Assembly: GCF_018613235.1 (NCBI RefSeq)
Contig: NZ_JAGGQP010000018.1
Span: forward strand, 1-39,981
From: Bacillus sp. ISL-41
GTDB taxonomy: Bacteria > Bacillota > Bacilli > Bacillales > Cytobacillaceae
Reading direction: 5' to 3'
DNA length: 39,981 nucleotides
The position numbers and the translations under genes are program-made. Positions 9,565 to 35,210 of the stretch are shown here, one piece after another. A model generated the notes under the pieces. The model saw only the letters and a list, made by a program, of their open reading frames with translations, had not been told where the DNA came from and searched no databases. Within the stretch, counting starts at the first letter, position 1; every line of letters begins with the position of its first letter.

Positions 9565-10778
9565 CCTCTATTCACCTCCGAGAAGGCTTCCGCGAACTGT
9601 CCGTCATGTACCATGACAAGATGGATTCCCCTTGCATTGGCCGAGGCTCTTAAATTTTTCTCCGTATTGGTCGGGGATTCCTGTCGGTTCTTGACCAGGA
9701 AAATGCTCACCGATCCGTTCCGTTGATTATAGAAGGCAGCTTTTTCAATCAGCTCTTGAGTCAATTGTGCGGTTATCAACATGATTGAATTGTTCTGCTG
9801 CGCTAAGAAGCTCTCTGCCTCAAGGACCCGGTTAAACTGAACTGCGCACTCATCCCGGATTTTAGCAAGATGGTAGAGCAGCTGTTGCTGATGACCTTCA
9901 CCGCCACGGGCAGGAAACGCCTTACGCTCAGCACTTAATGTCAATAAGCCCACCTGTGCGCCTTTTCGTAAAATCGCCCTGATGACTGAAGCAGTGAAAG
10001 ATACGACAACTTCAAAGCGCGGTTCAGGGGCACAGTCCATCAGAATAGTCACGTCATGCGATTGCCTCTGTTCGAATTCCTTAGTCATAATGTCATTCCG
10101 TCTTGCGGTCGCCTTCCAGTTAATCCATGAGAAACGGTCTCCCGGCTGGTATTCACGAACACCTATAGCCATCGACGTATCACGCTGGACTCGCTCCTTC
10201 GAGGCGGTCATCCCCTGGTCAAAATGATGGGCTGCCGGTCTGTAAACCATATCCTGATACGCAGGATAAACCAGAATCTTATTTTCAACCGGCAGCAGCT
10301 TTTCTTTTTCAATTAATCCGAGCGGATCCCCCGTTTTAAACTTGATGCCTTGTAATGTATGCTCACCGCGAGGAAGGTTTTCAATCGAGTAATCAAAGCC
10401 GAATACCCGGCTGAATCCCGGAAACAGCATTGTCCTCGCCTTTTGCAAATCCCTGTGACCGGAAAGTGTATTCCCGACCGCTTCTTCGCCAATCGCATAA
10501 AACAGCGGGAAAATCATATTCCTTTCAAGAACGATGCTGGCTTTGAACTTCTCTCCAGCGTTAAATTCCTGTTTTGTATACACTCTTTCCGCCTTGATAT
10601 CTTTTATAGAATAAAGAGCGAGGCCCAATGCGTAAAGAGCGAATGGCAAGAAGCTGTAAAACAGGAACCAGCTGACAAAGCCGCCCTGGAACATCGCATA
10701 GGAAAAGGTAATCAAAATCAATAACAGTAAAATGATGAGCTTCCAAACTTCTTTAAACTTTTGGAAATACTTTTTCAT
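9561..10778 (-). CDS. yeaD: DUF58 domain protein (YeaD family)
   Basis: Membrane-anchored protein of 405 residues. Two hydrophobic segments near residues 15-55 are followed by a cytoplasmic region with the DUF58 signature, GVREYQPGDRFSWINWKAT and KEFEQ. The C-terminal part has a vWA-like fold in this family, with MDCAPEPR near residue 250. DUF58 proteins work with MoxR ATPases, presumably as assembly targets, but the biochemical role is not settled. The gene begins one base after the yeaC stop and overlaps yebA by 4 bp, so the three are translationally coupled. Confidence 0.9.
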   Translation of the reverse strand: MKKYFQKFKEVWKLIILLLLILITFSYAMFQGGFVSWFLFYSFLPFALYALGLALYSIKDIKAERVYTKQEFNAGEKFKASIVLERNMIFPLFYAIGEEAVGNTLSGHRDLQKARTMLFPGFSRVFGFDYSIENLPRGEHTLQGIKFKTGDPLGLIEKEKLLPVENKILVYPAYQDMVYRPAAHHFDQGMTASKERVQRDTSMAIGVREYQPGDRFSWINWKATARRNDIMTKEFEQRQSHDVTILMDCAPEPRFEVVVSFTASVIRAILRKGAQVGLLTLSAERKAFPARGGEGHQQQLLYHLAKIRDECAVQFNRVLEAESFLAQQNNSIMLITAQLTQELIEKAAFYNQRNGSVSIFLVKNRQESPTNTEKNLRASANARGIHLVMVHDGQFAEAFSEVNRG

Positions 10779-10779
10779 A

Positions 10780-11733
10780 TTACTTCACGAGCCTTTGGAC
10801 CGGCACAGGCACTCTCGCCAACACTCTGTTGACGACATCCTCGGTTGTAATCCCTTCGAACCTGGCCTCTGATTTCAAAATGATCCTGTGGGCGAAAACA
10901 TATGGTGCAAGGTACTGAATATCATCGGGAATGACATAATCCCTTCCGTAAATAAATGCATATGCCTGGGCAGCCTTCATCAAGGCGATCGAACCACGAG
11001 GGCTGACACCAAGATATACGCTTGAATGGCCACGAGTCCGGCTAGACAGTTCCACGATATATCGCTTGATCGTATCATCTACCACTACTTCTTTAATGCT
11101 CTGTTGCAGGTCACGCAGATCTTCAAGCGTTACAACAGGCTGCAAGTCTTCGACCGGAAGATTCCGCTGCGCTCGATGCAAAACTTCCATTTCCTCATCC
11201 AGAGCAGGATAGCCCATCTTCATTTTTAAAAGGAATCGGTCAAGCTGTGCCTCAGGCAATGGATAAGTACCCTCATAATCAATTGGATTCTGTGTCGCCA
11301 TGACGAAAAATGGCTTGCCAAGTATATGGGTCACACCATCAACCGTGACACTATGCTCTTCCATTCCTTCCAAAAGAGCCGACTGTGTCTTTGGGGATGT
11401 CCTGTTGATCTCATCGGCAAGAATGATATTACCCATGATTGGGCCTGGCCTGAATTCAAACTCCATCTCTTTTGGATTGTAAATCGAAACCCCTGTCACA
11501 TCGGAAGGCAACAGGTCTGGTGTGAACTGGATCCTCCTGAACTTCGCGCTGACAGACTTCGCAAGCGCACGGACCATCATCGTCTTCCCCACTCCGGGCA
11601 CGTCTTCAAGCAGAACATGTCCGCCAGCAAGTAATGCAATCAAGCTGAGCTCCGCCACATTCCTCTTACCCGTCATAACCTTATCAATATTTTCTAGTAT
11701 TCTTTCAACTGTTGGATCCATCTGATTCCGCAT
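10780..11733 (-). CDS. yeaC: MoxR-family AAA+ ATPase
   Basis: Cytoplasmic AAA+ ATPase of 317 residues, typical of the MoxR/RavA group. Walker A is DVPGVGKT at residues 44-51. Walker B is ILADEINR, with D107/E108. FFVMATQNPIDYEGTYPLPEAQ is the family signature with sensor 1, and SPRG near 255 lies in the sensor 2 region. MoxR proteins act as chaperones that mature metal- or vWA-containing partners, here probably the DUF58 and TgpA proteins of the same operon. AGGGGG precedes the ATG. It is the first gene of the unit. Confidence 0.94.
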   Translation of the reverse strand: MRNQMDPTVERILENIDKVMTGKRNVAELSLIALLAGGHVLLEDVPGVGKTMMVRALAKSVSAKFRRIQFTPDLLPSDVTGVSIYNPKEMEFEFRPGPIMGNIILADEINRTSPKTQSALLEGMEEHSVTVDGVTHILGKPFFVMATQNPIDYEGTYPLPEAQLDRFLLKMKMGYPALDEEMEVLHRAQRNLPVEDLQPVVTLEDLRDLQQSIKEVVVDDTIKRYIVELSSRTRGHSSVYLGVSPRGSIALMKAAQAYAFIYGRDYVIPDDIQYLAPYVFAHRIILKSEARFEGITTEDVVNRVLARVPVPVQRLVK

Positions 11734-21915: not shown

Positions 21916-23619
21916 TCAATACGATATTCCCGTTCTTGTATGTGTTTTTTCAAACTCAGTCATATTGGGATCAAAATACTTTTCATCATATTTTGCCACA
22001 AACTTTCCATCGTCTACATACCCGGAACCCCAGGTCGGATCCATGGTGATCCATTTACCGTCAATTTCCGCTTCGACCCACGCATGCCTTGAAGGCCACC
22101 AGCCGCCGCGGGCCATACCTTCAACGAACCGCGATTCAATATCGCTCGCTCTCATTAAAGCAATTGTCAGATAAGAATAGTCCTGACAGACACCTGTTTT
22201 TAAATCCAGTGTTTTCAGGGCGCTATCATCCCACTCAAAATCATCCGTCTCCAGCTTTTCAACATCATAGGCAACAGTTTTGGCTACATACTCATAGATT
22301 GCTTTAGCCTTATCCCTCTCCGTGCTCTTTCCTGCGGTGATTTCACTTGCCAGCTGTCTGATCGGCTCTGAATCGGATTGAACACCCCTTGATGGCAGCA
22401 GGTCACGCTGGTCTTCACCGGTTGATTCAACCTCAAAGCGGGCAAACCCGTAAAACCGGAAGTAATCACTATTTTCTTCTTTTATCTCAGGAACACTTAG
22501 TATAACCTCATATGTTCCGGGGCCGAACCGCAGATAAAAGGAGTCATCAAATGTAAAGTCCTTAACCGGAATGACATCTAACGCTTCATCTTCTCCCTTT
22601 TTAGTCGTGATATAGATATGTGTTGTATCAGGGCCAAACTCAGCATTAGGATCAATTTTCCCCTTTATACTGTACATTCCATCTGTCTCTTCACCGCCAT
22701 ATACAGGGGACTCGAGAGTAACGCCGCGCTCTAGGTATTGATCCATATACTCAATCGGCAGCATCGTCTTGTCAGACTCATTATCAATTAAAATAGTCGT
22801 AGCCGTCTGGTAGTAATTCTCACGTTCTTCATCCGGAACGAGAACCTCGAGTTCATGGACACCTTTACCGTAAAATAAAGGCACGTCATAGCTGAATTTA
22901 CCATCCTTGATCGGCATAATATGCTTCCAGCTCTCCATATCCTTTGTCAGCTGAAGCATGACGGTATCTTCATCTGTCAGATTTCCAGCTTCCCCTTCCA
23001 ATCTAAAAATCTCGTTTTCTTTCACATAGCCAGAATCAACACCAAGAGCCACTTCCGCGTCCTGGCCAAACGGGGTCAGCACAAGATCACGTTCAATATC
23101 CGGATTCACATTGTGGACATCAAAGGCGGTTGCTTCAAAATAATAATTCTCCGTTTCATTGCTCGGGATATGGACACTCACATGGTACTTACCTTCCCCA
23201 TTAAAAAAACGAATTGTCTGCTTGTACTTGCCCTCCTTGAGCTTAGCGTAGTACTCATGCTGCTGTCCCGCAGGCCCTTCTTCATCTGCCGATACTTTGA
23301 TCAATATATAATCCGACTTCAAAGAGGAAAACTTGTCAATCTTCCCTTCGACGACAACCTTCCCGTTGACCGCGAATTCCTTATGCTCCGGACTGGAAAA
23401 AGTGGAGCCAATCTCCTCGTTATAGGAACCCAGTTCAAGCGGCTGAAGCTCAAGTTCCTTGTTTTTTTCCTTCACCAGCTTTTCGTATTTATCCTCTTGT
23501 TTCTTCTCAGCCTTCGCCTTAGCATCACTCGGACTCGCATCGCTGCAGCCAGACAAAATGAAAAACGAGCTTAACAACAACAGCAAAACTGATAATATAG
23601 GATTCTTCTTCCGGTTCAT
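21916..23619 (-). CDS. Transglutaminase-like domain lipoprotein
   Basis: Surface lipoprotein of 567 residues. The signal peptide ends in the lipobox LSGC (C25), followed by a charged linker. Three related beta-rich segments follow, recognisable by the recurring endings ENYYFEATAF, ENYYQTATTI and SDYFRFYGFARF (about residues 60-420). The C-terminal transglutaminase-like domain has C478 (GVCQDYSYLT), H512 (SRHAWVEAEIDGKW) and D527 (MDPTWGSGY), the complete triad. Such domains may crosslink or cleave proteins at the cell surface; the target is unknown. The gene has its own terminator. Upstream (23620-23822) I see only leader sequence, and beyond that the 52-bp repeat array. Confidence 0.9.
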   Translation of the reverse strand: MNRKKNPILSVLLLLLSSFFILSGCSDASPSDAKAKAEKKQEDKYEKLVKEKNKELELQPLELGSYNEEIGSTFSSPEHKEFAVNGKVVVEGKIDKFSSLKSDYILIKVSADEEGPAGQQHEYYAKLKEGKYKQTIRFFNGEGKYHVSVHIPSNETENYYFEATAFDVHNVNPDIERDLVLTPFGQDAEVALGVDSGYVKENEIFRLEGEAGNLTDEDTVMLQLTKDMESWKHIMPIKDGKFSYDVPLFYGKGVHELEVLVPDEERENYYQTATTILIDNESDKTMLPIEYMDQYLERGVTLESPVYGGEETDGMYSIKGKIDPNAEFGPDTTHIYITTKKGEDEALDVIPVKDFTFDDSFYLRFGPGTYEVILSVPEIKEENSDYFRFYGFARFEVESTGEDQRDLLPSRGVQSDSEPIRQLASEITAGKSTERDKAKAIYEYVAKTVAYDVEKLETDDFEWDDSALKTLDLKTGVCQDYSYLTIALMRASDIESRFVEGMARGGWWPSRHAWVEAEIDGKWITMDPTWGSGYVDDGKFVAKYDEKYFDPNMTEFEKTHTRTGISY

Positions 23620-23822
23620 TGTTACCTCCTTAGGTTTTAATCCTTAAAAATTTCAGCGATGTTTTATTTACGAATAACAACTTTGGAGGTTCCTAGGACT
23701 ATAGACTCTATTCACAAAAATTTCTAAGTGGATATGACTTAAAAAGATGAGCCTCCTAAAAAGCTAATCTAGATTTTTAATGATACATTTTCTTGATACT
23801 TCAGTTGAAATGAAAGTGCATC

Positions 23823-24029
23823 TCCGAAATGTTTATTAAATCCACTTTCTTAGACATTTTGGGACTGCTTCTTCTCCGAAATGTCTATTAAACCACTTTC
23901 TTAGACATTTTGGAGCTGCTTCATCTCTGAAATATCTATTAAACCCACTTTCTTAGACATTTTGGAGTTGCTTCACCTTTGAAATGTCTATTAAACCCAC
24001 TTTCTTAGACACTTTGGAGTTGCTTACTT
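23823..24029. repeat. Four tandem ~52-bp hairpin repeats
   Basis: Units start at 23823, 23875, 23926 and 23978 (lengths 52, 51, 52, 52) and differ at only a few positions. Each carries the arms CCGAAATGTCTA and TAGACATTTTGG, a stem of about 12 bp around a loop of about 16 nt (TTAAACCCACTTTC core), followed by GGAG(C/T)TGCTTC. Units abut with no spacers, so this is not a CRISPR array. The array ends exactly at the stop of the small membrane-protein gene at 24030. It may act as a terminator for that gene or be a mobile repeat. Confidence 0.9.
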
Positions 24030-24320
24030 CTATAATGCAACCGAAAGCCTCCATATGAAGAAAATCACTGCCAGTGCCAACCCTGAAAGCACCGACTTTT
24101 TACTAATGATGTCACCTTCATCATTTGTTGCTCTTAAAGATATCGATCCGGTAATCAGGCCAAGGATTGATAAGCCTAAAAAGATATAAGCTATATTTTC
24201 ATTCCCTTCAAGATATATTACCCCATTTTCGTCCGCTTCAGAAATAGCCCAAATAATAGCTCCAGTTAAAGTACCCACAATGATAATCCCCGTTATTATG
24301 GTTAGTAACTTCTTTGACAT
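24030..24320 (-). CDS. Small three-helix membrane protein, paralogue B
   Basis: Protein of 96 residues, no family recognised. Three hydrophobic helices (about 6-27, 45-62, 77-95) are separated by acidic loops. It is clearly related to the 97-residue protein encoded 218 bp upstream: both share ADEN, YIFLxLS, a KK pair at the same spacing, and GLxLAxxFxxWRLxV at the end. The ATG at 24320 has AGAGGTGA; the frame is open further upstream without support. A terminator separates the two paralogues, so this copy probably has its own promoter. The low GC content matches the other paralogue and the 3' half of the Trp-rich gene. An immunity-type role is inference. Confidence 0.75.
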   Translation of the reverse strand: MSKKLLTIITGIIIVGTLTGAIIWAISEADENGVIYLEGNENIAYIFLGLSILGLITGSISLRATNDEGDIISKKSVLSGLALAVIFFIWRLSVAL

Positions 24321-24446
24321 GAAATCACCTCTAATTCCTAATGCACACATAACAAGTTGGACACTATCAAAGATCCAATGGTGAGGGTCCTTGGTCACCA
24401 TAAAATAGTTTTTAGAGAAGGTCTACATTTGAATATAAGAATTTCT

Positions 24447-24481
24447 AAAAAAATGGATTAGCCTTCTTCGGCTAATCCTTT
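24447..24481 (-). terminator. Terminator between the two small membrane-protein genes
   Basis: Perfect 9-bp stem GGATTAGCC / GGCTAATCC with a 6-nt loop, followed by A and seven T on the minus strand; T runs lie on the other strand too. It probably ends the Tad pilus operon. Confidence 0.92.
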
Positions 24482-24537
24482 TAAATATTGGAGCGTAGAG
24501 TTATTATCTTAGAAATTAAACTTTTTTAAATGTTATA

Positions 24538-24831
24538 CTAAAATATTGTGACAAGAAGTCGCCAAACCACAAAAAGAGCTGCAAGAGATAGTCCCCCGTA
24601 AATAGCCTTTTTTCCTACATTTTTACTATTTTCCCTAACACCTGCCGCATCTACTGCAGTTAAAATTACTGCCACGAATGATAAGGCGAGAAAGATATAT
24701 ATATTATTTTTTTGTTCTTCGAAATCTATATTCCAATTTTCGTCTGCAACATTGAATGCATAGATTGCAAATGCTACGCCTACTAAAAGAAGGTATGAAT
24801 AAGTTATTTTTGTCCACGTTTCCTTTTTCAT
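24538..24831 (-). CDS. Small three-helix membrane protein, paralogue A
   Basis: Protein of 97 residues with three hydrophobic helices (about 10-26, 44-62, 77-96) and a charged loop (ADENWNIDFEEQKNN). It is paralogous to the protein at 24030-24320, with roughly a third of aligned residues identical by eye in the last 68 positions. It starts 32 bp after the stop of the Trp-rich gene, in the same operon, and ends before a strong terminator. The base composition is AT-rich. Size, membrane location, duplication and position directly after a mosaic exported protein are what immunity proteins usually look like, but no family match is claimed. Confidence 0.78.
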   Translation of the reverse strand: MKKETWTKITYSYLLLVGVAFAIYAFNVADENWNIDFEEQKNNIYIFLALSFVAVILTAVDAAGVRENSKNVGKKAIYGGLSLAALFVVWRLLVTIF

Positions 24832-24863
24832 TTAATTCACCTCTTTAAAAGCAATTACTTTAG

Positions 24864-26393
24864 TTAGTTTTGAAGTGGATAAGGAGGGGCTGTTTGATTG
24901 TTATGAATACTCTTGGATTCAGGTATATTTTTATCCTCAATATCTGATGTTTTATTATTTGGACTTGTATCATTTTTAGAATCTACACCAGAATTCGTTT
25001 CTGGCTTTACACTTGGTTCATTTTTAGAATCAACATCAGAATCCGTCTCCGGCTTTACACTTGGTTCATTTTTGCTGTTATTAGTGAGATCACCGTTCAC
25101 CCCACTTTTCACTACTTCCTCAATTGTTTTAGTAACACTGTCAGCTACTACTCCCTCTTTTAAGAATGAAAGGAGTGGGGTAAAGACTTTAATTGAAACA
25201 ACAGTAACAACAGCACCTACAAGTATATTGTCAAACCCTAACCAATCTCCTTCTTTAATTACTCCAGAAATATAGTTTTCTATTCCACCATACACTCCTA
25301 TAGCTCCTACCATGCCAAAACCTAAAGTAACGCCAGGAATAAGAATTGGACCTAATAGGAAACCTGAAACAGAACCAATGATAGTATCCCAAAATAAATC
25401 AGAAACCGAAAATTCTTTCCCAGTGAATTTATAAGTAAGAACATAAGATAAAATATTGGAGAAGAACCCTGCTGCTCCTCCTAATGCTGCTCCTTTAAAC
25501 ATTAATTTAAGAACATTATTCACAGTATAAAATCCCTTAATTTGCCCCCATAAAGGCCTCATCTTTACCCATCTATATGCGGCAACAGTCTTTGTTCTAA
25601 GCCACGGCCAAGCGGTACCTCGCATCCAGCCCCAAATAGCAGCCGGGCGCCCTCTGAGCCATGGCCAGGCGGCCGTTCTCCACCAGTTAGCGGCAACAGG
25701 CCAGGCAACTGTCCTGATCCAGCCGATTGCTGCGGCAAATGCGCCGGTGGCATAGCCAATATACCCTAGTACTCCTCCAACAAGAGCGAAACTAAACGCT
25801 CCCCAGAAGCTGTAATTATCACCCGCGAGCCATTGATAGGTGAATCCGCCAATAAGCGCACCAGCCACAATGATCAGCCCTGCTACAATCCCAAGAGGAA
25901 TAGCAATCACTCCAAAGAATACAAGGAGCGCAATGACACCGATGATAATGCCCGCAGCAAGAATCCCTCCGAGCAGCGTCTGCGCCCATTCATTTTCACT
26001 GAACCAGTCTCCAATACTTTTAAAGAAGTCTTCGATGCTGCCCCACACGTCTGTTGCAAGATCCCAGGCATCATTCCACTTATCTTTTGCGAAATCCCAG
26101 GCATCATTCCATTCATCAACCGCCCAGTCTTTAAACTTGTTCCAGCCATCTACTAGACTGTCTCCGATATCCCCCAGCTCATTCAATGCCTTTTTCCACC
26201 AGGGCAGGGGACCATCCTCGCCATCAACCGGTTCTCCTCCCGACGCATCGGTTGGTTCTGTTTTACTCAAACCCTGCTTATTGGTTTCGACCTCTGTCAA
26301 ATCCGCCGAGACAGGGATTATAACGGCAAACTGGATCAGAAATAAAGCCATAAATGCTAATACGATTCTAATTTTTGAACTTCTAATTGTCAT
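24864..26393 (-). CDS. Trp-rich exported membrane protein at the end of the Tad operon
   Basis: Protein of 509 residues, family not recognised. It has a signal peptide (1-30, IPVSA-DL). Residues 62-136 carry an amphipathic, Trp-rich repeat (WNDAWDFAKDK, WNDAWDLATDV). A cluster of hydrophobic helices (140-222) is followed by a second Trp-rich repeat (224-282, WPWLR twice). More membrane helices fill 295-405, and a low-complexity tail contains the 16-residue repeat SKNEPSVKPETDSDVD twice. Of 27 tryptophans, 25 lie before residue 283. Hand counts give 63% GC at 25580-25699 but 34% at 25381-25500, a sharp change within the gene near codon 278. This suggests a conserved N-terminal carrier part joined to an acquired C-terminal part, as in polymorphic toxins. 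Toxicity is not shown. Confidence 0.72.
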   Translation of the reverse strand: MTIRSSKIRIVLAFMALFLIQFAVIIPVSADLTEVETNKQGLSKTEPTDASGGEPVDGEDGPLPWWKKALNELGDIGDSLVDGWNKFKDWAVDEWNDAWDFAKDKWNDAWDLATDVWGSIEDFFKSIGDWFSENEWAQTLLGGILAAGIIIGVIALLVFFGVIAIPLGIVAGLIIVAGALIGGFTYQWLAGDNYSFWGAFSFALVGGVLGYIGYATGAFAAAIGWIRTVAWPVAANWWRTAAWPWLRGRPAAIWGWMRGTAWPWLRTKTVAAYRWVKMRPLWGQIKGFYTVNNVLKLMFKGAALGGAAGFFSNILSYVLTYKFTGKEFSVSDLFWDTIIGSVSGFLLGPILIPGVTLGFGMVGAIGVYGGIENYISGVIKEGDWLGFDNILVGAVVTVVSIKVFTPLLSFLKEGVVADSVTKTIEEVVKSGVNGDLTNNSKNEPSVKPETDSDVDSKNEPSVKPETNSGVDSKNDTSPNNKTSDIEDKNIPESKSIHNNQTAPPYPLQN

Positions 26394-26462: not shown

Positions 26463-27200
26463 CTAGTCGCAGAATATGTCAAAGCCCTCTGGCTCCCCGA
26501 TCCTGGCAGATGATTCTGCGGTAATTGCCGGAACTCCTTCATCTGGTACTGTCGTATATTGACCCTTCCGTTCTGTCACGACATAGATGCGGAAATCCTC
26601 GGGGATGAATGTCATTTGTTTTATTTTGTCATTCTGGTTTTCCTTCGCGAATTTTTCTGCTTCCTTACGGGCTTCCGTCAAATTATCCCTGACCGACTTG
26701 CAGGCAATATCCCTTACGCCATCATCATCAAAGAAGAACTTCATGGCTGTCTTTGCTTTGACTTCGACAGAATGATCCAGAATCCACCCGACCATATCGC
26801 CAGGCATATTCCGGCCATCGTAATTGTCTTCCATCATTTCCACAAACTCTGCTAATAGCTCACTTTCAGAGGGAGGCGGCGGTGGATCCTCTCCTTCCGC
26901 AGGAGGCTCTGAATCTGCAGAATCCTCCAGGAACTGTTCCCAGGCTTCTCCTAATGCATCCAGCTCTTCCTGGGTTTTATCCTGCAGCGTTTCCTTCATC
27001 GTGTCCTTGGAGGACTTTGCCGCCGCCAAGGCTGCTGAGTCAGCGCCTGTTTGGGTCACCCGTTTATTGATGAATACATTTGAGAAATCAAAGAACATCA
27101 AAGCTATGAAAATAGCAGCTATAAGCATGCCAACCATGATGATCAGCATGCCGCTGCCTCTCTCGTTGTTAATATAGTTTTTCAGTTTCTTAATCGTCAT
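26463..27200 (-). CDS. tadG: TadG-like pilus assembly/pseudopilin protein
   Basis: Protein of 245 residues with the N-terminal sequence NNERGSGMLIIMVGML, a prepilin-like basic segment and one membrane helix (about 17-40), then FINKRVTQTGADSAALAAA, typical of TadE/TadG-type proteins. Unlike the Flp pilin and TadE it lacks the glutamate at +5 after the glycine, so processing by a prepilin peptidase is doubtful. The extracellular part is acidic, with a PPPPP stretch near residue 110 and no vWA domain, so it is shorter than classical TadG. Start ATG follows GGAGG. It overlaps the TadE stop by 11 bp. Confidence 0.82.
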   Translation of the reverse strand: MTIKKLKNYINNERGSGMLIIMVGMLIAAIFIALMFFDFSNVFINKRVTQTGADSAALAAAKSSKDTMKETLQDKTQEELDALGEAWEQFLEDSADSEPPAEGEDPPPPPSESELLAEFVEMMEDNYDGRNMPGDMVGWILDHSVEVKAKTAMKFFFDDDGVRDIACKSVRDNLTEARKEAEKFAKENQNDKIKQMTFIPEDFRIYVVTERKGQYTTVPDEGVPAITAESSARIGEPEGFDIFCD

Positions 27201-27576
27201 CTGGTTCTTCCTCCATTGGCATCACTGCATCCATCGCAAAGGAGAATTTCATTTCCGAAATCAGCGGAAGGGCCACGATTGGCGCCTGGACCTCCACCAC
27301 AACCCTGGCTTCATCAGGACCCGGTCCACCTGATATATTTTTAATTTTTACGCCATAGGCTGATCTTTTTGTGACATTTTCCCAGTCAGGATCATGTACA
27401 GAAGCTGCCCTTGCACCATCTCGGGCAGCCGATTCTGCGACTACAACTGAAAAGGCAATCAGCGCAACCTGCCAGATGATCAGGAAAGCCAGAATAACCA
27501 GCGGGAACATCGCGACAAATTCGATCGACTGTGAACCCTTTTCATTATTAAGAAGCTTTTTTATTTTTCCTTTCAA
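27190..27576 (-). CDS. tadE: TadE-like minor pseudopilin
   Basis: Protein of 128 residues. KLLNNEKGSQSIEFVAMFP contains a prepilin peptidase site: cleavage after G leaves SQSIEF, with Glu at +5 and Phe at +6. A single helix (about 20-42) is followed by AESAARDGARAASV, the TadE signature. TadE proteins are minor pilins of the Flp pilus. I place the start at the TTG at 27576, eight bases after GGGG; an in-frame TTG at 27585 directly abuts that sequence. The gene lies between flp and the TadG-like gene. Confidence 0.87.
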   Translation of the reverse strand: MKGKIKKLLNNEKGSQSIEFVAMFPLVILAFLIIWQVALIAFSVVVAESAARDGARAASVHDPDWENVTKRSAYGVKIKNISGGPGPDEARVVVEVQAPIVALPLISEMKFSFAMDAVMPMEEEPDDD

Positions 27577-27600
27577 ATTTAACAACCCCGGAAATTATTA

Positions 27601-27816
27601 TTATGATCCTGCGCCAATCTTTCCTACCAATTCACTCAACTTGCTCATGATCGTCTGTCCAAGAGAAGTGTCCTCGCCGATGCCCGAAGCAATTGCGCCC
27701 ATGACCGCAAGGACAACAAGGCCTAATGCAACCCATTCAAGCGCCTGGGCACCTCTCTCATTGTTCACATAACGATTGTATACACCAGTCATCTTCACCA
27801 TAGTTTTCTTTAACAT
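27601..27816 (-). CDS. flp: Flp-type major pilin
   Basis: Prepilin of 71 residues. The leader MLKKTMVKMTGVYNRYVNN ends in ERG; cleavage after G gives AQALEWVALGLVVLAV, with Glu at +5 and Trp at +6 in place of the usual Tyr or Phe. The mature pilin would be about 47 residues with one hydrophobic helix, typical for Flp. Start ATG at 27816 lies nine bases after GGGAG; the ATG three codons earlier abuts the Shine-Dalgarno. Position between TadC and TadE supports the call. The mature end, LSELVGKIGAGS, is small and polar. Confidence 0.93.
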   Translation of the reverse strand: MLKKTMVKMTGVYNRYVNNERGAQALEWVALGLVVLAVMGAIASGIGEDTSLGQTIMSKLSELVGKIGAGS

Positions 27817-27856
27817 ATTATTCATCTCCCGATTTTTATTTTTATAGTTAATCCTT

Positions 27857-28795
27857 CTACTTGAAGAAGGAGTCCAACCCAAATGCTTGAGGATTGTAGA
27901 AAATATTTAACGCAAGCAGACCAATTATGAGGCCGAATACGGCTGGTGCCACGAAAAAAGTGGTGACCAGCGTGATTTGCGGGCTTGCTTTGGCTGCCTT
28001 TTCTTTAGCAATGAAACCTCTTGTCGCCCTTAAATCATCCGCCTGGAGTTTGAATGTCCTGGATACCGGCACACCAAGTGAAGATCCTTGTATCAATCCG
28101 TTAACCAGTGAATGCAGTTCCTTCGAAGAATTCCTTTCTATCAAACTCTGATAAGCGGTCAGCCTGGGAACTCCGAGCTCGACTTCCTTGTTAAAACGAT
28201 CAATCTCCTCGCTTAGCGGCCCTTCAAATTGCTTTGTTACTTGTTTCAGGGCTGAATCCAACCCAACTCCTGCCTGCAGGGTGACACTGACGGTATCAAG
28301 AAAATCAGGCATCATGATGCTGATCGTTTCCTGTCTGTATTTCGCTTTGAAATAAAGCCAAAGACTCGGTCCTAAAAACCCGCCTAAAATGGAGATTAAT
28401 AGAATCTGGAGTCCTGATGGCATTCCCAGAATAGAGTAGAAACTGCCAAATCCGAGGCCGATCAAACCAAGCACAAACCTGAAACCATAGAAATCCTGGA
28501 TTTGCATCCCTAGAGGGTTTCCCGCCTCCTTTAGCATGCGATCGTGTTTATCGATCTCAGCAAAAAACGGATATTTAATCCCGACCGGGCCTGCCTTGAA
28601 TCCCCATTGGATAATCGGTGACAACAGCCTTTCCCTTAGTGGGATCTTTTTCTTCCGATTCTTTGGATTATATCCCTGGGAAAGCAGGAGCTTTTCTTTT
28701 TTTACGATAAACAGATACAGATAGACAAACCCAATGAACAACGTCAGCAGTATAAGCGAAAACATCACCATTGAGAAAAAACCGATTAATTTCAT
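27857..28795 (-). CDS. tadC: Tad pilus inner-membrane platform protein TadC
   Basis: Type II secretion F-family membrane protein of 312 residues. Hydrophobic helices lie near the N-terminus (5-30), in the middle (about 110-155) and at the C-terminus (about 275-305). The GspF domain contains PDFLDTVSVTLQAGVGLDSAL and RNSSKELHSLVNGLIQGSSLG. It forms the membrane platform with TadB on which the TadA ATPase acts. AAGGGTG precedes the ATG, 5 bp after tadB. Confidence 0.92.
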   Translation of the reverse strand: MKLIGFFSMVMFSLILLTLFIGFVYLYLFIVKKEKLLLSQGYNPKNRKKKIPLRERLLSPIIQWGFKAGPVGIKYPFFAEIDKHDRMLKEAGNPLGMQIQDFYGFRFVLGLIGLGFGSFYSILGMPSGLQILLISILGGFLGPSLWLYFKAKYRQETISIMMPDFLDTVSVTLQAGVGLDSALKQVTKQFEGPLSEEIDRFNKEVELGVPRLTAYQSLIERNSSKELHSLVNGLIQGSSLGVPVSRTFKLQADDLRATRGFIAKEKAAKASPQITLVTTFFVAPAVFGLIIGLLALNIFYNPQAFGLDSFFK

Positions 28796-28800
28796 CCTAT

Positions 28801-29733
28801 CTACACCCTTATATTTGTAATTCTCTTAATTAAAATGAAGGCAAAAAAGACTAAGGCGGAAAAAGCTAAAAATAACAGCAAACCCAAAGGTCTAAATAAA
28901 ACATTCAAAAAGCCTTTGATGAAGAGATTCATCATCATCGCCATCAGAAATGGCATCACGACCAGGATATAAGCGATCGAGCGGCTTTCAGCCGTGACGG
29001 TCTGGATTTCTTTATGGACACGGCTGCGTTCTTCCAGGGTTTCAGCCATTGAAGAAAGAACTTCAGCAAGGTTTCCCCCCACACGTTGCTGGATCAGGAT
29101 TGTACTGACAAAAATATTGATATCATTACTCGGTACCCGCTCCCTGAAATCATTCATAACGGTCTCAAGGCTGTCTCCAAGTTTAAATTGGTAATCCATC
29201 TTCTGAAACTCCTGGCCGCTTGGCTCCTTCATATCTCGCCCAACCATTTCGATTGTCTGCGGAATGGTTTGCCCGGCCTTTATACCGTTGGACATCATCC
29301 GGCACACTTCCGGAAGCTGTTTATTAAATATTTCTGTCCGTTTATTTTTAGTAGAGTTCAAATAAAACTTAGAACCCAATGAAACGATTAAATAAGCGAA
29401 CATGATTGCCATGATGATATAAAGCCCTAGGACAAAGTGATTGATAAAGGTCAAGAGCGCAAGCAGCAAAATATAGATTCCCATATATTCAGAAGGTTTC
29501 AACGGAATATTGCCCTGGTAAAGTTTCCTTTCCAATTCATCCGAGAGTTCTGAACGGTCGAAACGGTCACCTATTAACAAGACGAAGCTTTTTCGTTCCA
29601 GGCTATCGCTTTTATCAAACCATTGATCTACTCTTTTAACCGTCCCTCTTGTATTACGGCTCTGCACAATATAAAACATACCAATGATGAAAAAGAAAAC
29701 ACAGCCAGTCAATAACAGCAAGGCAGTTGTCAT
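28801..29733 (-). CDS. tadB: Tad pilus inner-membrane platform protein TadB
   Basis: Type II secretion F-family protein of 310 residues with a first helix at 3-22, a central pair (about 84-120) and two C-terminal helices (about 255-305). LPEVCRMMSNGIKAGQTIPQ and IQQRVGGNLAEVLSSMAETL are the GspF-domain signatures, found in TadB. Its start overlaps the tadA stop by 4 bp, indicating translational coupling. It is the partner of TadC. Confidence 0.92.
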   Translation of the reverse strand: MTTALLLLTGCVFFFIIGMFYIVQSRNTRGTVKRVDQWFDKSDSLERKSFVLLIGDRFDRSELSDELERKLYQGNIPLKPSEYMGIYILLLALLTFINHFVLGLYIIMAIMFAYLIVSLGSKFYLNSTKNKRTEIFNKQLPEVCRMMSNGIKAGQTIPQTIEMVGRDMKEPSGQEFQKMDYQFKLGDSLETVMNDFRERVPSNDINIFVSTILIQQRVGGNLAEVLSSMAETLEERSRVHKEIQTVTAESRSIAYILVVMPFLMAMMMNLFIKGFLNVLFRPLGLLLFLAFSALVFFAFILIKRITNIRV

Positions 29734-31070
29734 GTTACTGCACCCGCCTGAAAGTGTTCTTTCGTGAATTCAACACCATAAGATACAAAGCGCTGATACA
29801 GCTTTGGCACATATCCTGTCGCAGCGAAATTTCCGACAATTGTTCCATCAGCCAGTGTTGCTTCCCGGTTAAATCGGAATATATCACGCGCAATAATCTC
29901 CCCATCTTCCTCCACCAGTTCAGCGATGCTGACAATTCTCCTTTTACCGTCAGAGAAACGAGAGGTTTGGACGATTAAATCAAGCGCCCCAACGAAATAT
30001 CCTCTGATTACCTCAACCGTCAGCGGAAGTCCTGACATAATGACCATTGCTTCCAGACGGCCAAGGGCATCCTTCGGGCTGTTGGCGTGAACAGTCGTCA
30101 ATGACCCTTCATGACCTGTATTCATCGCCTGAAGCATATCGATTGCTTCCGAGCCACGGACCTCACCTACAATGATCCTGTCAGGACGCATCCTCAGTGC
30201 GTTCTTAACCAGATGATTGATCGTAACTTCCCCTTTTCCTTCCATGTTCGGCGGCCTTGCTTCAAGCCTGACCAGATTGTCATAATTGAAACGAAGCTCT
30301 GCCATGTCCTCAATCGTGACGATCCTTTCACCTCTTGGAATCGAGGCTGACAGGACATTCAGAAGGGTTGTTTTACCGCTTCCTGTCCCGCCGGATACAA
30401 GGATATTTGCTTTTGCTTCAACTGCGGCCTGCAAAAAGATGGCCATTTCATTTGAAAAACTGCCAAAGCCCATCAAGTCTTCAAGCGTAAATGGATCCTT
30501 TTTGAACTTCCTGATCGAAATCGATGGACCATCGATACTGATTGGTGGAATGACGGCATTTACACGGCTTCCATCGAGCAAACGCGCATCTACCATCGGT
30601 GAACTCTCGTCGATCCTTCTGCCTAGCGGCGCAATGATCCGGTCGATAATGTGACGGACATGCTCATCATCCTTAAACCGTACATTCGTTTTTTCTATCT
30701 TCCCCTGTTTCTCAATGAACACCTCGTAAGCACCATTCACCATGATTTCAGTAATCGAATCATCTCTTAACAGGGCTTCCAATGGCCCATATCCTACAGA
30801 CTCATTGATGATCTGCTGGATAATCTGTTCAATCTGGTCATTTGGAATAATGACCTTTTCTTCATCGATCATTTGCATGATCAGTCGTTCAATCGTCTTT
30901 TTTCGTTCGACAGGTGATAAGGTCGTTATGTTTTCAAGATTGGCTTCCTTTATCAGACGGGATTTATAATGCCTCACCCATCTGTCGACCTGGGATTGTT
31001 CTACGTTCCATTCACGTTGCGGCGTGATTTTTTGTGTGCTTAAAATGGAGGCTTTCTCTACCCACGACAT
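29730..31070 (-). CDS. tadA: Tad pilus secretion ATPase TadA/CpaF
   Basis: Cytoplasmic secretion ATPase of the TadA/VirB11-like group, 446 residues, which powers pilus assembly. Walker A GGTGSGKT lies at 227-234; the Asp box TIEDMAELR follows near 252; Walker B DRIIVGEV lies at 297-304 and is followed by RGSEAIDMLQAMNTGHEGSLTTVHANSP (His box) around 306-331. The N-terminal region (about 75-200) is the usual recognition domain with GYGPLEALLRDDSITEIMVN. AAGGGGTGA precedes the ATG. It lies 5 bp after cpaE. Confidence 0.96.
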   Translation of the reverse strand: MSWVEKASILSTQKITPQREWNVEQSQVDRWVRHYKSRLIKEANLENITTLSPVERKKTIERLIMQMIDEEKVIIPNDQIEQIIQQIINESVGYGPLEALLRDDSITEIMVNGAYEVFIEKQGKIEKTNVRFKDDEHVRHIIDRIIAPLGRRIDESSPMVDARLLDGSRVNAVIPPISIDGPSISIRKFKKDPFTLEDLMGFGSFSNEMAIFLQAAVEAKANILVSGGTGSGKTTLLNVLSASIPRGERIVTIEDMAELRFNYDNLVRLEARPPNMEGKGEVTINHLVKNALRMRPDRIIVGEVRGSEAIDMLQAMNTGHEGSLTTVHANSPKDALGRLEAMVIMSGLPLTVEVIRGYFVGALDLIVQTSRFSDGKRRIVSIAELVEEDGEIIARDIFRFNREATLADGTIVGNFAATGYVPKLYQRFVSYGVEFTKEHFQAGAVT

Positions 31071-31075
31071 TCAAA

Positions 31076-32203
31076 TCACCCCTTTGTACGATTTTGCATT
31101 TCATCCACATACTTTTTCATGGATTTCGAGACCTTGTTGCTGCCCTTATCCTTCTTCTTTTTATAAAATCCTTCTCCCATATTGATGAATGGCTGGATCG
31201 AGAAGAAGTCCGATTCAATGCAGCCATTCACTTCACGGCCAATGATTTTTTCCATATCCTTAAGAGTTAATTCAAGCTTTGGATGGTATCGATTAATCAG
31301 GACTGATACCTCTCCTCCTCTGCCAATCTGGAATCGCTCAAACAAATCCTCAGAATACTTAAAGGCTCTCAGCCCCAGGCTGTCAGGTGTCAGAATGTAA
31401 TGAATGTGATTGGATTCATTCAGTCCTGTAAAAGTTGAATTGTTGATGTGAGACGGCAAATCAAGAATGATGTAGTCATAATGGCTTTTTGCCACACGAA
31501 TCAGCCTTCCGATTAATTCATCAGGAATGGATTCTGCCTTTGCCGGATTCGCTGGACCAGTCAAAAGCGTTACCTTTGTTTCTTCATGATAATTTGAAAC
31601 GTTTTGCAGGTGGCGAATATCCATCTCATCCATAACTGGAATCAGATCAAAATAAGAACGGACAGGCTGAATGCCATATAGAACATCTGCATTCCCGAAT
31701 TGAGCATTCAAATCAATAAGCAGAACCTTAAAACCGTGATGAATACTCAAGGATTGAGCCAGCAAGCTGGCGAGCAATGTCTTGCCGCTCCCGCCCTTCG
31801 CACTATAAAAGGCATGAACCTGACCATTGCCATATCCCATTTCTGTTTCTTTTTGGAACTTAAATTGCTCTTTAGAAGCTTTCAATGCTTCCAACAGCCT
31901 GTTTTTCTCACCTGGCAGGACGATAACATCCTTTGCCCCGGCTACAAGCCAGGTTCTCGCTTGCTCAAATTCATAATTGCGTGTTAGACCCAGTACAATG
32001 CTTGAGGAAGACATTGGAATTTGCTGCGGGTTCTCAATTGTATCTAAATCAACAAATATATAATGATAGGACTGCTGCTCACGAAACGTCCGTTTCCATT
32101 CGGACACAACGGAAATTTCGATATTTTCCTCGCTGACCAACTGCAGCAGTTCCTCACTCCAGCTCCTATCCTTGCTAATCAGCAAACCTTTATATATGCT
32201 CAC
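31076..32203 (-). CDS. cpaE: CpaE/TadZ-like localisation ATPase
   Basis: ParA/MinD-type protein of 375 residues. An N-terminal receiver-like domain (about 1-120) is followed by a deviant Walker A motif, AKGGSGKTLLASLLAQSL, then LLIDLNAQFGNADVL and YDYIILDLPSHI. In Tad systems CpaE/TadZ proteins position the pilus machine at a cell site. The frame begins at a TTG (32221), but the GTG at 32203 has GGAAGGA nine bases upstream and gives MSIYKGLLISKD, so I use it. In the 104-bp gap to cpaB a small hairpin, TCAGGG/CCCTGA, may modulate downstream expression. Confidence 0.92.
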   Translation of the reverse strand: MSIYKGLLISKDRSWSEELLQLVSEENIEISVVSEWKRTFREQQSYHYIFVDLDTIENPQQIPMSSSSIVLGLTRNYEFEQARTWLVAGAKDVIVLPGEKNRLLEALKASKEQFKFQKETEMGYGNGQVHAFYSAKGGSGKTLLASLLAQSLSIHHGFKVLLIDLNAQFGNADVLYGIQPVRSYFDLIPVMDEMDIRHLQNVSNYHEETKVTLLTGPANPAKAESIPDELIGRLIRVAKSHYDYIILDLPSHINNSTFTGLNESNHIHYILTPDSLGLRAFKYSEDLFERFQIGRGGEVSVLINRYHPKLELTLKDMEKIIGREVNGCIESDFFSIQPFINMGEGFYKKKKDKGSNKVSKSMKKYVDEMQNRTKG

Positions 32204-32307
32204 ACTTTCGCATCCTTCCAAAGCAATGAAATATTTATGATTAAGGTGTTTCTTCAGGGGTGATTCCCTGAGTTTAAAACGGTATAAGATTAAGATTTTA
32301 ATATATT

Positions 32308-33114
32308 CTAAGGTTTAGACTGTTCTTTAGATGCAGGCTTGTCGGTTGCCTTGTCAGCTGGTGCCTTATCGGCTGGGGCTTTCTGTTGTTCTGTATTTGC
32401 TGCTGCTCCAGCCTCCCCATCAGCTTTATTTTGCTCCTGCTGCTTTTTGTCTGCTCCTTCAGCTTGTTGTGAAGTCTCCGCTTCCTTAAGCTCTTGCTTA
32501 CCTGAAGATGCCTGATTTACCCTGAGCACCCTGATTTGCTTTGCTGAGTTCTGGTAATGAATCAGGCTTTCTGCATCCTCAATCGGCACGGAAATCCGCA
32601 CACGTGGAGGTTCTTCATCCACTTCTTCAACCTCGACAACATAAACATTTTGGAAGATTCGCTTTGTTTGCATTTTGTCTTCCTTGCCAGTTGTAACTAT
32701 GATATCTACAAGATCCCCTGGAGCAATGTTCTTCTGGTCGACCAGAACGATTTCAGTTGCATTCAGCCATACAACACGCTCGTTTTCAGGTATATCTATT
32801 TTCTTTCTCACAAGGTTTTTTGTAAGAAGGTCTCCACCTTTTAAATTTACGACGGTAATAACTTCTTCTAAATCCTTCTCATCTGTAATGAAGCCTTTTT
32901 GTGCGCTTGCTTTTGGAAGCTGGATCCATTCAATGTCTTTAGCTGTAAGCTCATAATAGGATTTTACATCTTCCTTTACCGCTGCAACCGCTACAGTCTT
33001 ACCTAGCTTTTCCTGTGCCTGGTTGATTTGGACGAGGATGACCCCCGCTGCTACAAGAGCAAGTAAAAAAGAAATCGTTAAAAATAAAATTGCTTTTCTT
33101 TTAGAATCTATCAT
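32308..33114 (-). CDS. cpaB: CpaB/RcpC-like pilus assembly protein (SAF domain)
   Basis: Membrane-anchored protein of 268 residues with one N-terminal helix (about 9-28). A SAF domain follows (AAVKEDVKSYYELTAKDIEW onward, then GDLLTKNLVR and VLVDQKNIAPGDLVDIIV). The C-terminal 65 residues are low complexity, rich in Q, A, K, E and D with the repeat KAPADKAPADKA, probably an extended linker in the wall. In Gram-negative Tad systems this protein works with the secretin; here there is no outer membrane, so a wall-associated role is likely. The start overlaps the upstream gene by 4 bp. Confidence 0.9.
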   Translation of the reverse strand: MIDSKRKAILFLTISFLLALVAAGVILVQINQAQEKLGKTVAVAAVKEDVKSYYELTAKDIEWIQLPKASAQKGFITDEKDLEEVITVVNLKGGDLLTKNLVRKKIDIPENERVVWLNATEIVLVDQKNIAPGDLVDIIVTTGKEDKMQTKRIFQNVYVVEVEEVDEEPPRVRISVPIEDAESLIHYQNSAKQIRVLRVNQASSGKQELKEAETSQQAEGADKKQQEQNKADGEAGAAANTEQQKAPADKAPADKATDKPASKEQSKP

Positions 33115-33875: not shown

Positions 33876-35210
33876 TCAGCTAGCATTAATCTGGTCGATT
33901 AATTCCTGGCGTCTTTTGTCTACTTTTTCTTTCGCTTGTTCCATCAGGGACTCACTGAAGCTATTCAATTCCTCATATCGGATTTTAATCAAATCATAGA
34001 TGGCGTCTCTGTCTTCGGGTTTAATTTTTTCCTGCTTCTGCAGTTCCGATAATGCATCTCCTAACAGCATTCTTTCCGTGTCTGCAACGTCCATGAAATC
34101 ATTCCTGATTCCTCCGACCTGCTGCTTTAAGTCTGCGGTCCGGAAGTTGATTTCTGTTTTGCTGGATGCTTTAGAGATATTTTTCTCAATGGAAGACATT
34201 GCTTCACCCATCAATTTGGTTAGAGTGTTTTCCAGTTCTACCTTTGAGTTGACGGTATAGTATTGGCCATTCCCTGCTTGAGCTGCCGCTTTAAGCTGCC
34301 TCTGCCCCTCATCATCCACATTAAAGCCAATGATATTGACCTTGACCTGCAGATCAGAGTTTGCGAGCTTTCTAGCTTCTTCAACTGGGTCACCATCACA
34401 TGTTTCAATCCCGTCACTCACAACATAGAGGATATTTTCTGTATTTTCATCTGCCTTTGTTTGTAAATCGTCATATCCGGCTTTTATGGAGGCCGCTATA
34501 GGCGTCCAGCCGCTTGGCTTAAACTTATTCAGCGCAGCACTGAAATTTTGTTCATTATAAGTATTGGTTTCATACATGACCTCCGTACTTGAACAGGATA
34601 GCTGTTTGTCTTTGTCATCTCCTGTGCCCTTATGCCCATAGGTACGCAAGGTGATTGGGGTCTCATCCGGGAATCCGGCAGCAAATTTTCTGACGGCATT
34701 TTTGGCTAAATCCATTTTCACTCCGCCTGAAACCTGTCCGTTCATACTTCCGCTTGAATCGATATGTATAGCAATATTCTTGATCTTTTGTTTCTCGCCG
34801 GCGATGTCGTATTCACCATAATCAGGTTCATAGTTTACAAGGTTTTGGTAAACTTCTGTATAATCCATGCCAAACCAGTGAATCAATCCATTTAAAATTT
34901 CCTGTTCCGATTGATCTTTCGTTTGGAATTCCGCCATCAATTTGTCCATGTCGCTTATAGAATCCTCATCAGCTGTTCCAGCCTTGGCCGCTGCCTCTGC
35001 CATCTTTTCTCCAACTGGCTGGTTGACAATTTCTTCACCCGTCATTGCCGCTTCGGGATATTCAACCTTTTCTGCAGCTTCCTCTTTCTCTTTCTTTTCC
35101 TCCTGCTTTGCTGGCTGGCTGCTTTCTTTTTCAGCGGCACCCTGATCGGAACATCCAGTAAATAGAGCCGCTGAAGCCATGCAGAAAATTAGTGCTGCAA
35201 TCTTCTTCAT
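33876..35210 (-). CDS. vWA-domain lipoprotein heading the Tad locus
   Basis: Lipoprotein of 444 residues with lipobox FTGC (C20), then a highly charged Glu/Lys linker. The von Willebrand factor A domain (about 145-335) has a full MIDAS: D151-S-S153-G-S155, a threonine in TPITLRTYGHKG, and the acidic site VSDGIETCDGD. A helical, charged region follows to the C-terminus. It resembles YwmC/YwmD-like vWA proteins of bacilli. At the head of a pilus operon it may be a surface adhesin or anchor, replacing the vWA part missing from the short TadG-like protein. GGGGAG precedes the ATG. Confidence 0.88.
   Translation of the reverse strand: MKKIAALIFCMASAALFTGCSDQGAAEKESSQPAKQEEKKEKEEAAEKVEYPEAAMTGEEIVNQPVGEKMAEAAAKAGTADEDSISDMDKLMAEFQTKDQSEQEILNGLIHWFGMDYTEVYQNLVNYEPDYGEYDIAGEKQKIKNIAIHIDSSGSMNGQVSGGVKMDLAKNAVRKFAAGFPDETPITLRTYGHKGTGDDKDKQLSCSSTEVMYETNTYNEQNFSAALNKFKPSGWTPIAASIKAGYDDLQTKADENTENILYVVSDGIETCDGDPVEEARKLANSDLQVKVNIIGFNVDDEGQRQLKAAAQAGNGQYYTVNSKVELENTLTKLMGEAMSSIEKNISKASSKTEINFRTADLKQQVGGIRNDFMDVADTERMLLGDALSELQKQEKIKPEDRDAIYDLIKIRYEELNSFSESLMEQAKEKVDKRRQELIDQINAS

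What the first reader, a model, noticed from the sequence alone, without database searches (positions are those of the whole stretch)
24030..26393. Candidate cargo/immunity cassette fused to a Gram-positive Tad pilus operon
Directly after the TadG-like gene, and before any terminator, comes a 509-residue exported Trp-rich protein, followed by two paralogous three-helix membrane proteins. Within the large gene GC drops from 63% (25580-25699) to 34% (25381-25500) near codon 278, and tryptophans almost vanish after residue 282. A conserved front, a foreign-looking back and duplicated small membrane proteins behind it are the layout of polymorphic toxins with immunity genes. Here it is tied to a pilus machine rather than to type VII or WXG secretion. 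None of the three proteins matched a family I know.
Basis: partly seen in the sequence, partly recalled or inferred. Interest (0 to 1): 0.8.

Follow-up and report, generated by a model that had tools for sequence, protein, structure and literature searches.

The report
Swappable toxin gene in pilus operon
A pilus-building gene cluster in a Bacillus relative ends in a gene that looks like a modular bacterial weapon: its front half is kept while its back half and the small gene behind it are exchanged between strains, which suggests that this kind of pilus may deliver toxins to rival cells.

Summary
The 509-aa gene (24864-26393, -) follows tadG in a Tad operon. Against a same-genus genome, DNA is 92% identical up to window 25598 (codon 265); a 1.2-kb block (toxin back half, first small gene, terminator) is then replaced by a different 2.8 kb, and identity returns at 24398. 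Relatives sharing the front end in known toxin domains: LHH nuclease with SUKH_5, HNH-HHH nuclease with SUKH-4, TNT. The window's own back half is a helical hydrophobic domain without a recognised fold, followed by small membrane genes whose relatives recur as orphans in sister strains; it resembles TspA/TsaI-type membrane-depolarising toxins. In the family sample, toxin and this Tad type occur in the same 10 of 193 genomes. In distant Bacilli, toxins with a similar backbone begin with Flp-prepilin signals. Correction: the second small gene lies past a terminator, outside the exchanged block, and looks like an older orphan immunity gene. Toxicity, protection and pilus delivery are inferred. 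One paper mentions Flp pilins beside a toxin domain; a Tad-operon polymorphic toxin was not found.

The parts
24864..26393 (-). Candidate polymorphic toxin, 509 aa: Sec-type signal, Trp-rich amphipathic stretch, hydrophobic hairpin, Trp-repeat linker, membrane-type C-terminal domain, low-complexity tail
25598..26393 (-). Conserved N-terminal (trafficking) part, codons 1-265
   Evidence: 92% DNA identity to G011 ends at 25598; N-terminal alignments A1, A2, A6
25074..25553 (-). Variable C-terminal domain, residues 281-440 as aligned, helical in low-confidence models, GxxxGxxxG at the aligned zipper position
24538..24831 (-). P0002, 97 aa, three hydrophobic segments: candidate cognate immunity gene, inside the exchanged block
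24455..24478 (-). Terminator-like hairpin (9 bp stem, T run) ending the toxin/immunity unit
24399..25597 (.). Block replaced in the same-genus genome G011 (1.2 kb here, 2.8 kb there)
24030..24320 (-). P0003, 96 aa from the likely start: paralogue in the conserved flank, candidate orphan immunity gene
26463..27200 (-). TadG-like (Pfam Tad)
27190..27585 (-). TadE
27601..27882 (-). Flp-type pilin: the sequence carries GAQALEW followed by a hydrophobic stretch; no Pfam family hit
   Evidence: same motif in Flp genes of other loci
27857..28795 (-). TadC (T2SSF)
28801..29733 (-). TadB (T2SSF)
29730..31070 (-). TadA-like ATPase (name by position and sequence, recalled; not run through a family library)
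31076..32221 (-). TadZ-like (name by position and sequence, recalled; not run through a family library)
32308..33114 (-). RcpC/CpaB-like (Pfam RcpC, below cut-off)

Best explanation
This is a polymorphic toxin-immunity module built into a Gram-positive Tad (type IVc) pilus operon. The toxin is exported by a Sec signal (inferred from sequence). Its Trp-rich, hydrophobic front part holds it at the donor membrane or pilus base (inferred). The Tad machine presents or pushes it to a touching cell (inferred). There the exchangeable back half acts; in this genome it is most likely a helical membrane-inserting, depolarising domain (inferred). P0002, a small membrane protein made from the next gene, protects the producer (inferred); P0003 is a leftover immunity gene from an earlier toxin version (inferred). 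Shown by comparison: conserved front, exchanged back plus first small gene, small-gene paralogues that persist in sister strains, known toxin domains and SUKH genes in relatives, and near-obligate linkage to this Tad type. Not shown: toxicity, protection, and delivery by the pilus.
For: Exchange block with sharp ends. Same pattern clearly in 7 of 11 close pairs, partly in 1. Orphan paralogues: L020's first small gene matches L019's second (95%), L022's first L024's second (81%), L023's first L022's third (78%), and P0003 an ORF in G011 (86%). Toxin domains on the same front: LHH 2.4e-27 followed by SUKH_5 1.5e-29; Tox-HNH-HHH 3.3e-39 followed by SUKH-4 7e-16; TNT 6.3e-34 in a copy away from Tad; TNT 2e-29 in a gene just upstream of a Tad operon. 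Tad genes upstream, with at most four ORFs between, in 24 of 26 loci, plus 4 more seen later. Family: toxin in 10 of 193 genomes and TadC at 70% identity or more in the same 10. Order: 14 of 15 genomes with TadC at 50% or more (of 348 searched) carry the toxin at the locus. First small gene has 3 hydrophobic segments in 19 of 21 loci with membrane-type ends (others 4 and 2), against 0 and 1 in the two Tad-linked nuclease loci; L021, L025 and L071 were left out of this count. Back-half and first-small-gene distances correlate beyond front distance (n=20, partial r 0.32, permutation P 0.0004). In another family of Bacilli, toxins with a related backbone carry Flp-prepilin-like starts.
Against: No known toxin domain was found in the window protein itself. 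Structure models are poor (full length pLDDT 50.1, pTM 0.26; back half 60.0, 0.43). The glycine-zipper count of the window's back half is not above shuffles (P 0.42; P<0.05 in only 2 of 10 back halves). One genome (G448) has this Tad type without the toxin at the locus. One toxin (L021) lies away from Tad, and so do all 9 loci L111-L119 of distant relatives. The window toxin has a Sec signal, not a pilin signal, so Tad dependence is not written in its sequence. The permutation test does not fully remove relatedness, and front and small-gene distances correlate too (partial r 0.37).
Confidence: 0.74

Rival explanations
1. The protein is a polymorphic toxin, but it is exported by Sec alone and only shares an operon with the pilus; the pilus provides cell-cell adhesion while the toxin acts on its own at the surface.
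For: Sec-type signal. One copy (L021) and 9 loci of distant relatives without neighbouring Tad genes. One distant relative (L160) starts like a lipoprotein.
Against: Near-perfect co-occurrence with one Tad type; Flp-prepilin-like starts on relatives with a related backbone, two of whose genomes were tested and have TadE genes.
Confidence: 0.2
2. The protein is a fast-evolving structural or tip part of the pilus (adhesin or membrane anchor) whose back half diversifies under phage or immune pressure, and the small proteins are its partners rather than immunity proteins.
For: Position after tadE/tadG; near-obligate with this Tad type; no recognised enzyme domain in most copies scanned. Another Tad type has a different exported protein near the same place.
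Against: Nuclease and TNT toxin domains, with SUKH genes behind the nucleases, on the same front; a run of 12 small ORFs behind one toxin; persisting small genes in sisters; G448 has the pilus genes without it.
Confidence: 0.1
3. The GC step reflects only a compositional quirk (a Trp-rich, GC-rich repeat) within an ordinary gene.
For: The GC peak sits on the Trp-repeat linker.
Against: The back half is replaced at the DNA level while both flanks stay 92-93% identical.
Confidence: 0.01

Closest known systems
Polymorphic toxin systems (Zhang et al. 2012, PMC3482391; passages seen)
   Same: Conserved trafficking front, exchangeable toxin end, adjacent immunity genes; Tox-LHH, Tox-HHH and Imm-SUKH are named there
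   Different: The held text (first 300,000 of 357,715 characters) has no match for pilus, pili, Flp, prepilin or tight adherence; delivery here is tied to a Tad operon
TspA/TsaI and EsxX/ExiCD of the Staphylococcus aureus type VII system (PMC9484751, PMC12744356; passages seen)
   Same: Membrane-depolarising toxin end, polytopic membrane immunity proteins, runs of 2-16 tsaI copies downstream of tspA, orphan exiCD genes
   Different: Type VII delivery; [quoted passage not shown] no LXG family hit in the window protein
Kil Tad-like killing apparatus of Myxococcus xanthus (PMC8460266, PMC12075869; passages seen)
   Same: Tad-like machine needed for contact-dependent killing; in the 2025 paper one pilus tip (Tip4) carries or binds a toxic activity
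   Different: Gram-negative, works with a needleless T3SS; the 2021 paper says that the toxin remains to be discovered; no polymorphic toxin-immunity cassette appears in the passages seen
Flp pilins listed beside an ADP-ribosyl cyclase toxin domain (PMC12605009; one passage seen)
   Same: Toxin domain associated with a Flp pilin, as in L117, L118 and L152-L158 here
   Different: A mention in a list of architectures; no Tad operon linkage, no Sec-type Tad-operon toxin and no cassette exchange in the passage seen

Membership tests
Polymorphic toxin system | Conserved N-terminal part with exchangeable C-terminal domain among close relatives | tested here: met
   7 of 11 pairs clearly, 1 partly, 3 not
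Polymorphic toxin system | Known toxin domains found on the same N-terminal part in relatives | tested here: met
   LHH, HNH-HHH, TNT
Polymorphic toxin system | Recognised toxin domain in the window protein itself | tested here: not met
   no family; an unrecognised membrane domain is not excluded
Polymorphic toxin system | Adjacent immunity-type gene exchanged together with the toxin end; orphan copies | tested here: met
   (by sequence; protection not tested)
Polymorphic toxin system | Toxicity and specific protection | not testable with these tools
   needs bench work
Tad (type IVc) pilus locus | TadB/TadC, TadE, TadG-like, Flp, RcpC, TadA/TadZ in one operon | tested here: met
   (T2SSF twice, TadE, Tad over cut-off; RcpC below cut-off; Flp no family, by motif and position; TadA and TadZ by position and sequence only)
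Tad (type IVc) pilus locus | Prepilin peptidase (TadV) in the genome | not tested
   no search made
Type VII LXG/WXG toxin | LXG or WXG N-terminal domain | tested here: not met
   no family hit in Pfam or NCBIfam
Glycine-zipper membrane toxin (TelE, EsxX type) | Extended glycine zipper in a membrane-active C-terminus | tested here: inconclusive
   GxxxGxxx[GAS] at the same aligned place in 10 of 11 back halves, read by eye; counts exceed shuffles at P<0.05 in only 2 of 10, not in the window's; activity not testable
Tad-like contact-dependent killing machine (Kil type) | Killing lost when the Tad machine is removed | not testable with these tools
   needs bench work

The most novel reading that the evidence does not exclude
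In Bacilli the Tad pilus is a dedicated delivery machine for polymorphic toxins, with two loading modes: Sec-exported toxins encoded in the Tad operon (this window), and toxins that are themselves Flp-type prepilins and so become part of the pilus or its tip.
Probability: 0.45. Interest if true: 0.9.

Novelty: new variant of a known kind. Interest (0 to 1): 0.74.

Why it matters
Tad-like machines kill by contact in Myxococcus, but the passages I saw name no toxin gene for them. This locus offers defined, swappable candidate toxins with candidate immunity genes in culturable Gram-positive species (two Robertmurraya strains among them), so the question whether a Tad pilus can deliver a toxin becomes directly testable. 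If true it adds a route to the known ways by which Gram-positive bacteria fight neighbours.

Tried and rejected
Naming the window proteins by family: nothing over cut-off in Pfam or NCBIfam; PADLOC gives no match for the toxin and one weak match for P0002 (PycTM, E 0.042). PHROGs gives only weak tape-measure matches on and beyond the Trp-rich part (best for the window protein 3.5e-4), which I take as shared composition; this is why the weak hits in long frames were left aside. Of its 37 genomes, 16 (own included) were looked at and 21 were not. Of the 23 genomes, 13 were looked at and 10 were not.

Plasmid and phage carriage: no match to P0001. Fold search of the back half: 55 matches at E<=10, none at E<=0.001, from a low-confidence model; many of the top rows are respiratory complex I structures, not used. 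Searches of solved structures by sequence gave one chance-level match each.

A repeat at the right end of the exchange block: the 121-bp stretch 24300-24420 occurs once in the genome. Independent use of the window's back half in other toxin types: 7 of 397 genomes matched; 4 are Tad-linked toxins already mapped (own included), 3 are weak, two of them in what look like ABC transport genes (label recalled). That profile missed the back halves of the other Tad-linked toxins in the sample, so its reach is short. L063 (Amoebophilus MAG, E 3e-9) and the short remnant L071 were not followed.

Full report
WHAT IS THERE. The window is contig C10 of an unnamed 4.6-Mb genome. On the minus strand it carries a Tad operon: a lipoprotein that looks like a vWA protein (label recalled), a 247-aa gene, RcpC-like, TadZ-like, TadA-like, TadB, TadC, Flp, TadE, TadG. 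The 509-aa gene starts 69 bp after tadG and the 97-aa gene P0002 32 bp after that; then comes a terminator-like hairpin (24478-24455), then P0003 with its own ribosome site.

ANATOMY. Residues 1-30 look like a Sec signal. A short conserved stretch follows, whose Thr45 is nearly invariant in the 20-row N-terminal alignment. Then come a Trp-rich amphipathic stretch, a hydrophobic hairpin and a Gly-rich stretch, a Trp-containing linker, the variable domain, and a low-complexity tail. Models are all-helical but of low confidence.

CASSETTE EXCHANGE. Against G011 (same genus), DNA identity is 92.4% over 10.2 kb ending at window 25598 (codon 265) and 93.5% from 24398 on. In between, 1.2 kb here faces 2.8 kb there, which holds G011's own back half (40% identical to the window's over the domain), a different 97-aa gene and a lipoprotein-like gene. 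P0002 lies inside the block, P0003 outside. Pairs with closely similar Tad proteins repeat the pattern: L019/L020, L022/L023/L024 (3 pairs) and L067/L069 (TadG 81%, front less even). L026/L027 keep much of the front and end in two different nucleases. L074/L075 is partial. L073/L076 and L077/L078 have not exchanged, and L072/L074 is diverged throughout.

SMALL GENES. In the closest loci they form one loose family. In three cases the first gene of one strain is found at 78-95% identity as a later gene in a sister with a different toxin end, and P0003 has an 86% counterpart in G011. Runs occur: five genes in L020, 12 ORFs, alike by eye, in L078. Loci with membrane-type ends are followed by proteins with three hydrophobic segments in 19 of 21 cases (the others gave 4 and 2); the two Tad-linked nuclease ends are followed by SUKH proteins. 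Distances of back half and first small gene correlate after removing front distance (n=20, partial r 0.32, P 0.0004), though front and small gene do so too (0.37).

KNOWN TOXIN ENDS. Pfam finds LHH (L026), Tox-HNH-HHH (L027) and TNT (L021) in proteins that share this front, and TNT in a 617-aa gene upstream of the Tad operon of L068. L064 has two exported proteins after tadG, the first with lipase-like matches that are all below cut-off. The other Tad-linked proteins scanned gave no toxin family.

LINKAGE. Of 26 loci mapped, 24 have Tad genes upstream with at most four ORFs between; the exceptions are L021 (orphan) and L071 (54-aa remnant). L109 and L110 and L161 and L162 add four linked cases. 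In the family sample the toxin is in 10 of 193 genomes, and TadC at 70% or more identity is in exactly those 10; the next listed TadC matches are 47% or less. In the order sample of 348 genomes, 15 have TadC at 50% or more: 12 had toxin loci already mapped, 2 more were found on inspection, and 1 (G448) lacks it at the locus. In the genus, 2 of 21 genomes have the toxin and 3 of 21 this TadG; the third, G015, keeps a truncated tadG, has no TadC of this type and no toxin.

PREPILIN-HEADED RELATIVES. A class-wide search with the front led to nine loci in distant Bacilli without Tad genes nearby (L111-L119). Of nine toxin proteins scanned there, six end in a toxin family over cut-off (colicin-type DNases, endonuclease, two deaminases, LHH) and three in none. 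In L117 and L118 the Sec signal is replaced by a Flp-prepilin-like start. In the family of G725, 7 of 10 genomes match this type; of seven such toxins scanned (L152-L158), three end in a toxin family over cut-off, one has matches below it, three have none. Pfam DUF4244 hits the start over cut-off in L117, L152, L155, L156 and L158, below cut-off in L118, L153 and L154, and not in L157; the genome's own Flp in L151 hits it below cut-off, the window's Flp not at all. DUF4244 is labelled a Tad pre-pilin in a Bifidobacterium table (PMC11418510, passages seen). A class III motif scan finds the motif in nine of these toxins (L117, L118, L152-L158), in a pilin-lipase gene inside a Tad locus (L151), in 13 of 203 ORFs of ten Tad loci (at places and sizes that fit Flp and TadE), in Flp- and TadE-like genes of L150 and L151, in one stray ORF, and in none of 28 Sec-type proteins (the 26 mapped loci plus L064b and L068b). 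Relatives without it are L111-L115 and L119 (7 ORFs), L116 and three ORFs of L159 with unclear starts, and L160 with a lipoprotein-like start. Of the genomes with prepilin-headed toxins, G824 and G725 were tested and have TadE genes; of the ten genomes tested in all, six do.

MECHANISM. Most likely the toxin is exported, kept in or near the donor membrane by its hydrophobic front and handed over on contact with help of the Tad machine; the back half then inserts into the target membrane, and P0002 blocks this in kin. Inferred steps: export, Tad dependence, membrane action, protection. Membrane action is argued from hydrophobicity, the membrane-protein neighbours, and the resemblance to TspA/TsaI and EsxX/ExiCD. 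The glycine-zipper argument is weak.

NOVELTY. (polymorphic toxin with Tad pilus, tad locus, prepilin) each list one paper, on Myxococcus; PMC10433427 was seen in listings only. Searches list 17 and 9 papers, whose titles and abstract starts show none on this. One search found 57 papers, 20 listed, one of which mentions Flp pilins among partners of a toxin domain. The 2012 survey has no pilus term in the held text. So the kind (polymorphic toxin) is known, a pilin-toxin association has been mentioned, and the Tad-operon system with its own front domain and membrane-type cassette was not found in the library searched, which lacks most subscription papers and preprints.

Noticed in passing
L117 9640-11061, L118 9426-10976, L152-L158: Toxin-like proteins whose N-terminus is a Flp-prepilin-like class III signal; several end in DNase, endonuclease or deaminase domains.
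   Followed up: partly
L151 4832-5917 (-): Flp-prepilin-like start joined to a lipase-like domain, encoded within a Tad locus.
   Followed up: partly
L082-L089: A second Tad type in the same family (TadC 39-42% identical to the window's in these 8 loci) has a different exported protein of 416-586 aa with N-terminal repeats and a Gly-rich hydrophobic end; of 7 such and neighbouring proteins scanned, none hits Pfam over cut-off.
   Followed up: partly
L078 143-7967 (-): Twelve small membrane-protein ORFs, alike by eye, in a row behind one toxin gene.
   Followed up: no
L028 (G015) 8254-10497: Remnant of this locus: truncated tadG next to a broken transglutaminase-type lipoprotein gene, with an integrase-like gene (label recalled) nearby; no toxin.
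   Followed up: partly
L163 (G448) 9273-11466 (-): This Tad type without a toxin gene at the locus: tadG is followed directly by the vWA-like lipoprotein gene.
   Followed up: yes
window 23819-24025: Four copies of a 52-bp tandem repeat between P0003 and the transglutaminase-type lipoprotein gene.
   Followed up: no
window 24963-25073: 48-bp repeat, 2.3 copies, coding for part of the low-complexity tail of the toxin.
   Followed up: no
window 21916-23619 and 33876-35210 (-): A transglutaminase-domain lipoprotein and a vWA-like lipoprotein (label recalled) flank this Tad locus; relatives of one or both appear in many of the mapped Tad loci, role unknown.
   Followed up: no
window 26001-26201 (-): The Trp-rich stretch weakly resembles phage tape-measure proteins (PHROGs, best E 3.5e-4); shared composition or a shared membrane-crossing role cannot be told apart here.
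   Followed up: no
L160 3230-4507: A relative of the same backbone with a lipoprotein-like signal, so the export signal of this family seems exchangeable too.
   Followed up: no
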